From contig NZ_CP013650.1 in NCBI RefSeq assembly GCF_001466725.1, positions 310,001-374,000 on the forward strand: DNA of 64,000 bases, in the 5' to 3' direction. Every line of letters begins with the position of its first letter. Within the stretch, counting starts at the first letter, position 1. The stretch is from Lacimicrobium alkaliphilum. GTDB taxonomy: Bacteria; Pseudomonadota; Gammaproteobacteria; Enterobacterales; Alteromonadaceae. Of the stretch, positions 39,335 through 61,183 are shown piece by piece. Below the pieces are notes generated by a model. It worked only from the letters and a program-made list of their open reading frames with translations. It had not been told where the DNA came from and did not search any database. Both the position numbers and the translations under genes were made by a program.

Positions 39335-41809
39335 CTATTCAGGCTGGTGCTTTAACTGATGGTGTAACATCAGTAAATGGGCTGCACTCCAGCTAAAATT
39401 GGTTGCGCCCTGCATGGCGCCGGTTTCAGGATTGTAGTTTTCTCTGATGGCTGCGTTACCCTTGAGCCCCTGAGCATGCTCCAGCAATGCTGATGCCAGG
39501 GCTCCTGCCTGCTGCGTATAGCCGTAGTGCTTTAGTGCCATCACGCCGAAATACCACTGATCCAGCCATACCCGGCCGCGCCAGTAAATATCCGGGTGAT
39601 AGGCTGGATTCGTCTGTGATGCGGTACCAAGAGGGATAAGGGTATTAAATTCATCTACTGCCAACATATTCTGAACCACCTTGCGGGCCTGATTTTTCCC
39701 GGCAATGCCAGCCCACAGTGGCGCCCAGCCTTCCGGTCCTTTGCCTCTGGTGATCAGCAGTCTGCCGTCACAATCACCGCTATTATCATCAGCGCTGTCT
39801 ATCTGACGGTCATAGTAAAAGCCGCTCTGTGCATCAAAGAAACACTGATTAACCCGTTGTGCCAGTCGCCCGGCCCCGGCTTCCCAGTCTGCGGCCTCTT
39901 CGTCGCGGCCAAGCAACCTGGCCATTTTTGCCAGAAGGGCTTTTTCCATCGCCAGATACGCATTGAGCTCCACCGATTCCTGATTAATGGAAAAACCCAG
40001 TAGCTGGCCATTACTTGCGTGATTCTCAAAAAAACGCACCTGCCAGTCCTGTCGTGCTGTTTTCAGGTTGCCGCTATAGTGCTTGTCGGCATATTTCTTA
40101 AGCTGTTCAGAAGTGATAAATCCGAAGCGGGCGGCGTTATCCATGCCTGATTCCCACCCTGCGCCATGTTGAGCGCCAATATCCAGCTGTTTATACTCAC
40201 CGGAAACCAGCACCGATTCGTAGAATGTCATGCCACTGCACCGGTACCAGTCTTCCTTGATGATTTCGCATTGTTGCTCAGCGTGCCTGGCCAGTTGTGT
40301 ATTGGCAGCAGGTTGCAGGTCGAAAATGATATTGCCCTGCCCATCGTTGTGCAGCGGGTGGGCCGTGGCACCATATTCTGCCAGCCCATTTTGATTGTGA
40401 TCGCGGTTCTTATACCACCACTGGTGATAGGCAACGAGTTTCGGATAGAGGTCTGTGATCAGGTCTTTATCAGCACTGGCCTGATAAACCTCCCAGACTG
40501 CCCAGCTTGCCAGAGGGGGCTTAGTGTTTCTTTCATTCCAGTTGCCGCCATCGTCACCGCGCTGGCGATCTTTGTTATAAAAAATGGCATCGATGATCAT
40601 ACCGCTGTCTTGCGGGCGTATGCCATCATCGGCTTGCACCTGATAATCAAACATGGCGAGGATATTGTTTCTCGCCACGGCCGGGGCAAAGGAGGCCATC
40701 GCCACCGCATGTTTCCAGCTGTCCCAGGCCCAGGCACCATTAAACCAACGTGCGGTAACAGACGGGGTCACCACATCTCTGGTGATATGCCCTGCACTGC
40801 TGCGCCAGTTTCCAATCAGTGTCTCTATGGCTTTTAGCGCAACCTGGTCAGTTACAGTGGTTATCTGGTGCTGCGCAATGCCACTGCTCAGATAGTGATG
40901 CCAGCGCTTGCGGTTGGCCAGCCACAACGTTTCAGGGTGCCGGAAGCTTTGTTTAATAACGGGCTGCTCTTGTTGCCATTCCTGTTCATTGTGTATATAG
41001 GTTTGTGTGGTATAGATCCGGGCAGAACTCTTGCCCTTCAGGGTGATACTGGCAGTACTTTTATAGGTATCCTGGTGCATTTCTGAATGGCTCTTTACTG
41101 AGCGCTGGATCACATACCGGCTGGCACCGGATAACATCAGATTCCAGGTATCTCTTACTTCTGGCAAAGTAATACTGAGGCCGTTATTATCCTGCTCCCA
41201 TTGTGGTGACCAGTCAGAGTAACGCTCTGTAAGGGTCTGCTGTGTGTTCCATTTTTTTAATAATGCCCCTTGCCAGGTCAGGGTCAGTTGTTTTTCTTTA
41301 CCGGTCAGGTTCTCAATATGGGTTCTGATCAGCGCGCTTCGGCCGGAGATAAAAATCAGCTCTAGTTGCAGTGTCAGATCGGGCCAGTGATAATGTTGTT
41401 GCAGCCGTCCGGGGAAGGCCTGGTGCTCTGATACTGCATCGGCAAAAGCATATTTCTTATTCCCGGCAACAATTTCCAGTTGCTCTAACTGGCGCGCCAG
41501 ATACACAGGATACTCTTCGGCTATGATCATCGGCCCGGTAAAGGCTCCGCCACTGTCGTTGTCACCGGGCAGTAAAAAGCCATGCCAGGCTCCTGCATCA
41601 AACATTGGATTGAAGTGTTGGTTACCAAAGCTGTCATGTTGGCGCATAAACTGCGGTGAGCCCTGGCGATCAAGGGCAGAGGACCTGCTATCGGCGAGAT
41701 TTTCTGCGCGCAGGCTTTGGCAGCCGCTCAGGGATACCAACAGGCTGACAGCCATGCTTATGCAAAAATGTCTTCCTCTGCATCGGGTTAACAAGTTCAT
41801 TCCAGTCAT
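39335..41809 (-). CDS. GH63 alpha-glucosidase lipoprotein (YgjK-like)
   Basis: The protein has 824 residues. The ATG at 41809 has GAGG seven bases upstream. Signal [14 protein letters not shown] ends in a lipobox, so it is probably anchored in a periplasm-facing or outer membrane. The C-terminal 500 residues match E. coli YgjK closely in order: [103 protein letters not shown] and NFSWSAAH. The WESGxD and ENYN blocks hold the presumed acid and base. YgjK prefers glucose alpha-linked to galactose. It diverges from the TonB receptor and shares the palindromic operator at 41895. Inference: it removes the outer glucose from Glc-alpha-1,2-Gal units. Confidence 0.9.
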
Positions 41810-41894
41810 CTTTATGCCTCTGCTAAACGCCCGGATTATTTTGTCATAAAAGGTTCCGAAGCGGCGTTAATAGGTTGTGAAATTTAAATTAAAG

Positions 41895-41911
41895 TATTTA
41901 TACTATAAATA
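41895..41911. promoter_or_regulatory. 17-bp palindromic operator, site A
   Basis: TATTTATACTATAAATA, a perfect 8+1+8 palindrome, lies between the divergent GH63 and TonB receptor genes. The same palindrome, with a different centre base, lies at 50595 and 54106, with a two-mismatch copy at 53980. It is probably bound by the FadR-type regulator encoded at 50667. Confidence 0.8.
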
Positions 41912-59643: not shown

Positions 59644-59653
59644 AGGGGGAACC

Positions 59654-61183
59654 ATGGAGTTTCTGAAAAAATTAGGTATCAGTGCAGAAAATGCCGGTGT
59701 CAGCACCGGAACCGGCTGGCTGGATAAAAGTGACAGCGCACCCATTGCAATCCATTCACCAGTCGATGGCCGTCTTATCGCCAGGGTAACGCCTTGTTCG
59801 CAGCAGCAGTATCATCAGGTGGTGGAAAAAGCACACAGCGCATTTCTGCAATGGCGTCAGGTCACCGCGCCACAGCGAGGCGAGATTGTTCGCCAGATTG
59901 GTGAAGCGCTGCGTGAATATAAGCAGCCACTGGGCGAACTGGTCTCCTATGAAATGGGTAAGTCGTTGCAGGAAGGCTTAGGTGAAGTACAGGAAATGAT
60001 CGACATCTGTGACTTTGCCGTGGGCCTTTCCCGCCAGCTTTGCGGCTCGACCATGCATTCCGAGCGCCCATTGCACCGTATGTATGAGCAATATCATCCC
60101 CTGGGTGTGGTCGGTGTGATTTCTGCTTTTAATTTCCCGGTGGCGGTATGGTCATGGAACACTATGATCGCTGCGGTATGTGGTGATGCGGTGATCTGGA
60201 AACCATCAGAGAAGACCCCGCTGACCGCTATCGCCTGTCAGAACATTGTGCAGCAGGTACTGGTCCGCAATCATCTGCCCGAAGGGTTGTTGTCTATGGT
60301 TGTGGGCGGGCCGGAAATTGGTGAGCTGATGCTGGATGATAAACGCCTGCCACTGATGTCCGTCACCGGCTCAACCCGGGTCGGCCGTCATGCGGGTCAG
60401 AAAGTGGCGGCCCGTTTTGGTAAGAGTATTCTCGAACTGGGTGGCAACAATGCCATCATTATTACTGCCAATGCGGATCTTAAAGTCGCTGTGCCCGGCG
60501 TGGTGTTTGGTGCGGTAGGCACGGCGGGTCAGCGCTGTACCACCACCCGCAGGGTTATCGTACATGAGTCCGTGTATGACAAGGTTAAGGAATCGCTGGT
60601 CAGTGCCTACGGCAAACTGCGCATCGGCGACCCGCTGGATGAAAACAATCACGTCGGGCCCCTTATCGATAAAGACTCAGTGAGCAACTTTGTCAATGCG
60701 ATCAGCCGTGTTCGTGACGAAGGCGGCACGCTGCTGTGCGGCGGTGAAGTCTTGCAGGGGAAGGGTTATGAATCCGGCTGTTATGTGACCCCGGCGATTG
60801 TTGAGGCCGAAAATCACTATGACACAGTGCAGAGCGAGACCTTTGCGCCGCTTTTATACCTGATCAAATACAAAGGTGAACTCGAAGAGGCGATTGCACT
60901 GCAAAACGGTGTGGCTCAGGGCTTGTCATCGGCTATCTTTAGTCTGGATATGCGCGAAGTGGAGAACTATCTGGCCCATTGGGGTTCCGATTGCGGCATT
61001 TCTAATGTCAATATCGGTACTTCCGGTGCAGAAATTGGTGGTGCTTTCGGCGGTGAAAAGGAAACCGGCGGTGGCCGTGAATCCGGCTCTGACGCCTGGA
61101 AAGTCTATATGCGTCGACAAACCAATACCATCAATTACTCTACCGAGTTGCCGCTGGCACAGGGCATTAAGTTCGACCTGTAG
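59654..61183 (+). CDS. amaB: ALDH7/antiquitin-type 2-aminoadipate semialdehyde dehydrogenase
   Basis: NAD-dependent aldehyde dehydrogenase of 509 residues. It follows the antiquitin pattern throughout: RGEIVRQIGEALREYKQPLGELVSYEMGKS (in part RGEIVRQIGEALRE), GLGEVQEMIDICDFAVGLSR, SAFNFPVAVWSWN, SVTGSTRVGR, LELGGNNAIII (catalytic Glu), Cys295 in VGTAGQRCTTTRR, and the antiquitin-specific ending SGAEIGGAFGGEKETGGGRE and TNTINYSTELPLAQGIKF. ALDH7A1 and bacterial AmaB oxidise 2-aminoadipate 6-semialdehyde to 2-aminoadipate, exactly the product of the upstream fusion enzyme. Good ribosome site (AAAGGGGGAA). A terminator follows, closing the three-gene operon. Confidence 0.9.
   Translation: MEFLKKLGISAENAGVSTGTGWLDKSDSAPIAIHSPVDGRLIARVTPCSQQQYHQVVEKAHSAFLQWRQVTAPQRGEIVRQIGEALREYKQPLGELVSYEMGKSLQEGLGEVQEMIDICDFAVGLSRQLCGSTMHSERPLHRMYEQYHPLGVVGVISAFNFPVAVWSWNTMIAAVCGDAVIWKPSEKTPLTAIACQNIVQQVLVRNHLPEGLLSMVVGGPEIGELMLDDKRLPLMSVTGSTRVGRHAGQKVAARFGKSILELGGNNAIIITANADLKVAVPGVVFGAVGTAGQRCTTTRRVIVHESVYDKVKESLVSAYGKLRIGDPLDENNHVGPLIDKDSVSNFVNAISRVRDEGGTLLCGGEVLQGKGYESGCYVTPAIVEAENHYDTVQSETFAPLLYLIKYKGELEEAIALQNGVAQGLSSAIFSLDMREVENYLAHWGSDCGISNVNIGTSGAEIGGAFGGEKETGGGRESGSDAWKVYMRRQTNTINYSTELPLAQGIKFDL

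What the first reader, a model, noticed from the sequence alone, without database searches (positions are those of the whole stretch)
39335..61183. Candidate locus for breakdown of collagen glucosyl-galactosyl-hydroxylysine
The genes map step by step onto Glc-alpha-1,2-Gal-beta-O-hydroxylysine, the collagen modification. A YgjK-like GH63 enzyme (family preference for Glc-alpha-Gal) takes off glucose. An exported GH2 beta-galactosidase frees galactose. A vSGLT-like symporter imports it, and a complete De Ley-Doudoroff set (dehydrogenase, lactonase, dehydratase, dgoK, dgoA) burns it. In the same operon as the beta-galactosidase, an HYKK/PHYKPL-like fusion and an ALDH7 enzyme would turn hydroxylysine into 2-aminoadipate. 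A TonB receptor gives entry. I know of no described bacterial locus joining these parts; novelty was not searched.
Basis: partly seen in the sequence, partly recalled or inferred. Interest (0 to 1): 0.93.

Follow-up and report, generated by a model that had tools for sequence, protein, structure and literature searches.

The report
Collagen hydroxylysine-glycoside breakdown locus
A bacterium carries one gene set that appears to strip glucose and galactose from collagen's special sugar-bearing amino acid and then use all three pieces, and counterparts with swapped enzymes occur in distant bacteria.

Summary
All named genes lie at the stated coordinates. Comparative genomics supports collagen Glc-alpha-1,2-Gal-beta-O-hydroxylysine as the substrate. 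(1) Of 147 related genomes, 15 have the kinase/phospholyase fusion; the window's GH2 clade is in 14, all among those 15. (2) Each of the 15 has ALDH7 (5) or a LYS1-type saccharopine dehydrogenase (10), never both: both use allysine, the predicted product. (3) A palindrome, TATTTRTATTATAAATA, lies before GH63/TBDR, SDR and GH2/SGLT, its only sites at one mismatch or less in the 4.38-Mb genome. (4) Bacteroidota have SusC-SusD-GH2-GH63-fusion-HglS-ALDH7 operons; Flavobacterium uses GH42; GH2 and GH63 are one protein, in opposite orders, in Flavihumibacter and a planctomycete. (5) Hydroxyproline or collagenase genes lie beside the fusion or a GH63 copy in some relatives. Added: NhaC transporter and FadR regulator; CaiB/LysR/ACAD are flank. 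Against: the genome lacks M9 collagenase and 4-hydroxyproline epimerase, and sequence cannot separate phosphohydroxylysine from phosphoethanolamine lyase. No activity was measured; ten searches of an open-access library found no bacterial description.

The parts
39335..41809 (-). GH63 YgjK-type alpha-glucosidase with a lipoprotein-like N-terminus (by eye); predicted to remove glucose from Glc-alpha-1,2-Gal-
41895..41911 (.). Operator-like palindrome between GH63 and TonB receptor
42027..44762 (+). TonB-dependent outer-membrane receptor
   Evidence: PF00593, PF07715; recurs in related loci
44841..46376 (+).
   Evidence: TIGR00931 420>370, next best ArcD arginine/ornithine antiporter below its cut-off; beside the fusion even where GH2 is not near (L042, L043; L096, L102)
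46449..48269 (-). IlvD/EDD-type sugar-acid dehydratase (De Ley-Doudoroff)
   Evidence: PF00920/PF24877; PRK13017 970>684
48230..48967 (-). KDPG/KHG aldolase family (dgoA role)
   Evidence: PF01081
48882..49778 (-). 2-keto-3-deoxygalactonokinase (dgoK)
   Evidence: PF05035 E 1.8e-83
49778..50539 (-). SDR sugar dehydrogenase (galactose 1-dehydrogenase role inferred)
   Evidence: PF13561; best NCBIfam D-xylose 1-dehydrogenase, 262<400
50595..50611 (.). Operator-like palindrome between SDR and FadR genes
50667..51374 (-). GntR/FadR-type regulator, probable owner of the palindrome (inferred)
   Evidence: PF00392+PF07729; orthologue in 15 of the 17 named Pseudomonadota fusion loci that have GH2
51452..52375 (-). 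SMP-30 family lactonase
   Evidence: PF08450
52369..53940 (-). SSS-family Na+/solute symporter, galactose role inferred
   Evidence: PF00474; orthologue beside galT/galK in L081, L091, L093, L094
53980..53996 (.). Weaker copy of the palindrome (3 mismatches)
54106..54122 (.). Operator-like palindrome before GH2 (exact)
54147..57353 (+). LacZ-type GH2 with signal-like N-terminus (by eye); predicted to free galactose from Gal-beta-O-hydroxylysine
   Evidence: NF052611 1065>999; clade confined to fusion-bearing genomes among 147
57340..59643 (+). APH-type kinase + class III PLP phospholyase fusion; predicted 5-hydroxylysine kinase / phosphohydroxylysine phospho-lyase
59654..61183 (+). ALDH7-type allysine / L-piperideine-6-carboxylate dehydrogenase
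   Evidence: NF050084 821>730; hits to antiquitin and AASADH structures

Best explanation
The locus is a dedicated utilisation regulon for the collagen glycoside Glc-alpha-1,2-Gal-beta-O-5-hydroxylysine. The TonB receptor takes the glycoside or small glycopeptides into the periplasm; GH63 removes glucose; GH2 removes galactose. The SSS symporter imports galactose, which the De Ley-Doudoroff enzymes take to central metabolism. The NhaC-type carrier imports hydroxylysine; the fusion phosphorylates it and eliminates phosphate and ammonia to give allysine; ALDH7 oxidises that to 2-aminoadipate. A FadR-type regulator, probably sensing a galactose-pathway intermediate, controls the promoters through a shared palindrome. 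Shown by sequence: gene families, order, palindrome, conservation, co-occurrence and enzyme replacement. Inferred: every substrate, the transport roles, export, the regulator-palindrome pairing and its effector.
For: Co-occurrence and linkage: GH2 clade in 14 of 15 fusion genomes, 0 of 132 others; GH2 adjacent in 12 of 15. Allysine: each of 15 fusion genomes has ALDH7 (5, E 1e-100 or better) or LYS1-type saccharopine dehydrogenase (10, E 1e-40 or better), none both (identities). Cross-phylum: 45 of 80 fusion loci have a GH2 or GH42 beta-galactosidase within 8 kb and 26 of 80 also GH63; HglS near the fusion in 12 of 38 Bacteroidota loci, in one case in the same protein. GH2-GH63 single polypeptides in both orders. 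Galactose: galT/galK in place of De Ley-Doudoroff genes in four named loci. Palindrome. Collagen context: hydroxyproline genes beside the locus in Colwellia piezophila; a second GH63 copy near 4-hydroxyproline genes and an M9 collagenase in G029. Glc-alpha-1,2-Gal bound in YgjK by entry title.
Against: The window's genome has no PF05544 match and no M9 collagenase match. GH63 of fusion-negative genomes is interspersed with locus GH63 in the tree, and the Bacteroidota GH63 of L143 is below the YgjK equivalog cut-off (401<625), so GH63 sequence alone is not diagnostic. 35 of 80 fusion loci show no beta-galactosidase within 8 kb (some on short contigs), so the fusion has a wider use. The lyase half is nearest to phosphoethanolamine lyase. 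Palindrome: sites also occur in fusion-negative G005, which has several GH2 genes; at 2 mismatches the backward control pattern is as frequent in several A+T-rich relatives; the G027 stretches read show none at 1 mismatch.
Confidence: 0.85

Rival explanations
1. A general beta-galactoside/galactose locus (algal or other galactosides) that happens to sit next to an independent free-hydroxylysine operon.
For: Palindrome also found in fusion-negative G005 with several GH2 genes. Shewanella and Endozoicomonas loci have the fusion without adjacent GH2. Congener G001, without the fusion, has another galactoside locus (GH2, symporter, galT, galK, TonB receptor).
Against: GH2 overlaps the fusion gene; the GH2 clade never occurs without the fusion in 147 genomes; beta-galactosidase recurs beside the fusion in Bacteroidota and a planctomycete and is GH42 in five Flavobacterium loci; the palindrome also sits between saccharopine dehydrogenase and GH63 genes (L066, L090, L142).
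Confidence: 0.08
2. The fusion acts on ethanolamine or another amino alcohol (ethanolamine kinase / phosphoethanolamine phospho-lyase), e.g. from lipid head groups.
For: Closest solved structures are human ETNPPL (6tor, 53% identical over 397 aligned residues) and Arthrobacter phospholyase A1RDF1.
Against: The product would be acetaldehyde (recalled chemistry), yet the partners are allysine-pathway enzymes: ALDH7, saccharopine dehydrogenases, HglS, the last once in the same protein.
Confidence: 0.05
3. Not exclusive of the best explanation: this genome only scavenges free hydroxylysine glycosides or those of other collagen-like proteins and does not itself feed on collagen.
For: No M9 collagenase and no PF05544 match in G000, G002 or G063.
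Against: M9 over cut-off in 11 of 15 fusion genomes against 30 of 132 others, PF05544 in 12 of 15 against 30 of 132. Other protease families were not searched.
Confidence: 0.25

Closest known systems
Human hydroxylysine degradation: HYKK, PHYKPL, ALDH7A1 (Veiga-da-Cunha 2012, seen only as a citation; content recalled)
   Same: Predicted chemistry: kinase, then phospho-lyase to allysine, then ALDH7 to 2-aminoadipate
   Different: Kinase and lyase are one bacterial protein, in an operon with a beta-galactosidase
PGGHG, GH65 protein-glucosylgalactosylhydroxylysine glucosidase (passages of PMC8626586)
   Different: Here GH63 (GH31 in L144), different families
E. coli YgjK (GH63), PDB 3w7w with 2-O-alpha-glucosyl-galactose
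   Same: Same family, 41% identity, positions D324 and E727 kept
   Different: The gene context of YgjK in E. coli was not examined here
Bacteroidota polysaccharide utilisation loci (SusC/SusD)
   Same: Counterpart loci have SusC, SusD and glycosidases in one run of genes
   Different: The run continues into amino-acid catabolism of the aglycone
HglS / DUF1338 lysine catabolism (abstract and passages of PMC7286885)
   Same: HglS turns 2-oxoadipate into D-2-hydroxyglutarate, the predicted later step
   Different: In Bacteroidota joined to the hydroxylysine fusion; not in the window's locus

Membership tests
GH63, YgjK type | Family profile match over full length | tested here: met
   PRK10137 958>625, PF21152, PF22422
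GH63, YgjK type | Positions mutated in YgjK glycosynthases (D324, E727) | tested here: met
   D363 and E790, invariant in 16 aligned sequences
GH63, YgjK type | Hydrolysis of Glc-alpha-1,2-Gal | not testable with these tools
   Only the ligand in the title of 3w7w
LacZ-type GH2 beta-galactosidase | Curated model and five LacZ domains | tested here: met
   NF052611 1065>999; PF02837, PF00703, PF02836, PF16353, PF02929; GNE and EYAHAMGN motifs present (their role recalled)
Hydroxylysine kinase / phosphohydroxylysine phospho-lyase | APH kinase plus class III PLP lyase with catalytic residues | tested here: met
   PF01636, PF00202; conserved HND, N, DFGD, K605
Hydroxylysine kinase / phosphohydroxylysine phospho-lyase | Substrate 5-hydroxylysine rather than ethanolamine | tested here: inconclusive
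   Nearest solved structure is ETNPPL; context points to allysine; no PHYKPL or HYKK reference compared
ALDH7 / P6C dehydrogenase | Equivalog score above cut-off | tested here: met
   NF050084 821>730
De Ley-Doudoroff galactose pathway | Dehydrogenase, lactonase, dehydratase, kinase, aldolase together | tested here: met
   (family level)
De Ley-Doudoroff galactose pathway | Galactose as the substrate | tested here: inconclusive
   SDR and dehydratase below substrate-specific cut-offs; galT/galK in that place in L081, L091, L093, L094
GH65 PGGHG | GH65 alpha-glucosidase in the locus | not tested
   No GH65 search of the genome was run; none among Pfam hits of the locus proteins scanned

The most novel reading that the evidence does not exclude
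Bacteria of at least three phyla carry a dedicated, repeatedly re-assembled gene set for collagen's glucosyl-galactosyl-hydroxylysine. Its allysine outlet has been swapped: oxidation to 2-aminoadipate in the window's lineage, and in 10 of the 15 fusion genomes a LYS1/LYS9-type saccharopine pair that could turn hydroxylysine into lysine, so that a modified amino acid of animal collagen becomes ordinary lysine.
Probability: 0.5. Interest if true: 0.87.

Novelty: new variant of a known kind. Interest (0 to 1): 0.82.

Why it matters
Collagen is an abundant animal protein (recalled), and hydroxylysine and hydroxyproline are its marker amino acids (passage of PMC8780967). If right, this names candidate bacterial enzymes for each step from the glycosylated hydroxylysine to central metabolism; suggests a function for many proteins now labelled only as aminotransferases or kinases (7772 relatives at E 1e-100 or better among 8000 scored; none of the names shown for the 120 listed mentions hydroxylysine); offers a natural role for YgjK-type GH63 enzymes; and makes bacterial turnover of collagen glycans testable in species that have been cultured, such as Colwellia piezophila and Thalassotalea loyana.

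Tried and rejected
CaiB (61298-62506) as part of a glutarate branch: rejected. Its best NCBIfam hit is succinate-glutarate CoA-transferase but below cut-off (499<750), and CaiB, LysR and ACAD stand in the same order in G001, which has no fusion. ACAD (63538-) as glutaryl-CoA dehydrogenase: only weak NCBIfam hits to its part in the window; in G001 and G002 it is followed by an APH-like, a phosphatase-like and SDR-like genes (named by eye).

HglS as evidence in the window's genome: PF07063 is in 116 of 147 relatives, so uninformative there. Riboswitch near the NhaC gene: Rfam found only a tRNA in the window. Independent origin of Bacteroidota and Pseudomonadota locus GH2: not shown; one clade of all locus GH2 is disfavoured but not rejected (AU p 0.057). 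Fold search for the kinase half: the list was filled by the aminotransferase half; sequence search gave only homoserine kinase 2ppq, E 7e-07. Paper searches (all ten; one search showed 20 of 57 papers) gave no bacterial pathway for hydroxylysine glycosides in the titles, abstracts and passages seen; the library lacks most subscription papers.

Fusion-negative GH63 control: 5 of the 10 such genomes were read (L069, L070, L071, L075, L076).
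Full report
What is there. The window (G000:C1:310001-374000 of a one-contig 4.38-Mb genome) holds between 39335 and 61183 the genes described, all as open frames. Two more genes belong with them: an NhaC-type transporter (44841-46376) and a FadR-type regulator (50667-51374). GH2, fusion and ALDH7 are tightly packed (GH2 and fusion overlap by 14 bases; 10 bases separate fusion and ALDH7), diverging from the symporter-lactonase genes.

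Co-occurrence in 147 related genomes. Fusion orthologues of 50% identity or more are in 15. The window's GH2 clade (55% or more) is in 14, all fusion-bearing; the next best GH2 is 47%. In a 67-row quick tree the Pseudomonadota locus GH2 form one supported clade that also takes in the GH2 of G074, G127 and G146, which have the fusion; the planctomycete L147 and G122 attach next to it on long branches. GH2 is adjacent to the fusion in 12 of 15 (for G074 only a piece at a contig end); in G127 and G146 it lies elsewhere, and G042 lacks the clade. Full-length GH63 is in 13 of 15 against 10 of 132. In 10 of those 13 genomes a GH63 lies within about 10 kb of another locus gene (fusion, TonB receptor, NhaC, symporter or saccharopine dehydrogenase); not in G027, G127 and G146. 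In the 5 fusion-negative genomes read, none. These genomes are related, so the Fisher p-values overstate independence.

The allysine outlet. In 5 of 15 fusion genomes ALDH7 is present (E 1e-100 or better); in the other 10 it is not, and a LYS1-type saccharopine dehydrogenase is (E 1e-40 or better). No genome has both, none has neither. SDH_A matches saccharopine dehydrogenase, L-lysine-forming (3ugk, E 1.5e-98); SDH_B matches saccharopine reductase (1e5l, E 1.9e-42). SDH_A is otherwise in 1 of 132 genomes (G135). ALDH7 is also in 15 fusion-negative genomes of other families, at 60% identity or less. Among named loci L085 has both near the fusion, so the split is not absolute. Both enzyme sets act on allysine, which points to phosphohydroxylysine as the lyase substrate.

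Cross-phylum counterparts. GH2 or GH42: 45 of 80 (one, L151, only 24% identical). Beta-galactosidase plus GH63: 26 of 80. ALDH7, SDH_A or HglS: 30 of 80. In 38 Bacteroidota loci SusC-like and SusD-like genes are each found in 23. Chitinophaga pinensis (L143) reads SusC-SusD-GH2-GH63-fusion-HglS-ALDH7; its GH63 is below the YgjK equivalog cut-off (401<625). Five Flavobacterium loci have GH42 (Pfam on L116; the rest 81-95% identical to it). A Saprospiraceae locus (L144) has GH31 in the GH63 place. GH2 and GH63 are one polypeptide in L103 and L117 (GH2 first) and in the planctomycete L147 (GH63 first). L126 joins kinase, lyase and HglS. No beta-galactosidase was near in 35 of 80, some on short contigs.

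Galactose. In L081, L091, L093 and L094 galT and galK stand where the window has De Ley-Doudoroff genes, with the same symporter.

Regulation. A palindrome was found first in GH2 promoters and refined after seeing sites elsewhere, so its counts are biased upwards. In the window TATTTRTATTATAAATA lies at 41895 (GH63/TBDR), 50595 (SDR/FadR) and 54106 (SGLT/GH2), weaker at 53980 (8 strand-wise matches at up to 3 mismatches, shuffled mean 0.18). Genome-wide these three are its only sites with one mismatch or none; two others have two; the backward control pattern has 4 matches at up to 2 mismatches; G001 has none. In several A+T-rich relatives (G027, G050, G080) the control is as frequent or more so at 2 mismatches. 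With the looser form TATTT[AG]TANTA[TC]AAATA at up to one mismatch, 39 stretches of fusion-bearing genomes (736,458 bases) hold 42 sites against a shuffled mean of 0.30, and 17 control stretches (310,255 bases) none. Every site listed borders a locus gene, including saccharopine dehydrogenase/GH63 gaps in L066, L090 and L142; the G027 stretches (L036, L067) have none. Sites in fusion-negative G005 suggest a galactose-responsive regulator type.

Collagen link. Colwellia piezophila (L088) has 4-hydroxyproline epimerase (580>376), a D-amino-acid dehydrogenase-like gene (below cut-off), a DHDPS-family gene and part of an ALDH within about 6 kb of the GH2-fusion-ALDH7 genes. L137 and L146 have genes 31-34% identical to the epimerase near the fusion or split kinase/lyase. 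PF05544 is over cut-off in 12 of 15 fusion genomes against 30 of 132; M9 in 11 of 15 against 30 of 132. Against this, G000, G002 and G063 have neither, and G023 lacks M9.

Boundaries. In congener G001 the orthologues of 35804-36301 and of CaiB are neighbours, about 240 bases apart, so the block 36302-61297 is missing there; a different galactoside locus lies on the far side of the 35804-36301 orthologue. The window's block therefore looks gained or lost as a unit, and CaiB, LysR and ACAD are residents.

Verdict. Remaining doubt concerns direct activity, the fusion's amino-alcohol preference, and whether this particular genome eats collagen or scavenges its glycosides.

Noticed in passing
window 62516-63450: LysR-family gene is split over two overlapping frames in the window, intact (311 aa) in G002 and G001; frameshift or sequencing error, not mended.
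   Followed up: partly
L168 1-18064 (G001): Empty site: the whole block 36302-61297 is missing in a congener; beside it lies a different galactoside locus (GH2, SSS symporter, galT, galK, TonB receptor by BLAST; galE-, TRAP- and galM-like by eye).
   Followed up: partly
L204 9258-19001 and L205 640-5629 (G029): Island with GH63, hydroxyproline genes, M24 peptidase and M9 collagenase.
   Followed up: yes
L034 2417-4927 (G029): GH63 of the main locus is interrupted by stops while the second copy is intact.
   Followed up: partly
L103 5038-9978, L117 4956-9980, L147 4974-9953: GH2 and GH63 joined in one polypeptide, in opposite orders in Bacteroidota and a planctomycete.
   Followed up: yes
L126 9959-13195: Three-part protein: APH kinase, class III PLP lyase and HglS.
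   Followed up: yes
L116 12309-15260 and relatives: FAD-oxidase/4Fe-4S protein after the fusion in Flavobacterium; could be the D-2-hydroxyglutarate dehydrogenase that follows HglS (recalled YdiJ likeness, not tested).
   Followed up: no
L038 1217-3205, L063, L085, L089, L100: Tryptophan-halogenase-like gene (name by recall) next to GH63, NhaC or TonB genes in several relatives.
   Followed up: no
window 36466-38951: Two amidohydrolase genes beside GH63, also beside it in G002.
   Followed up: no
L135, L136, L156: In planctomycetes (Mariniblastus and kin) the fusion follows a 1200-aa and a 363- to 388-aa gene of unknown role.
   Followed up: no
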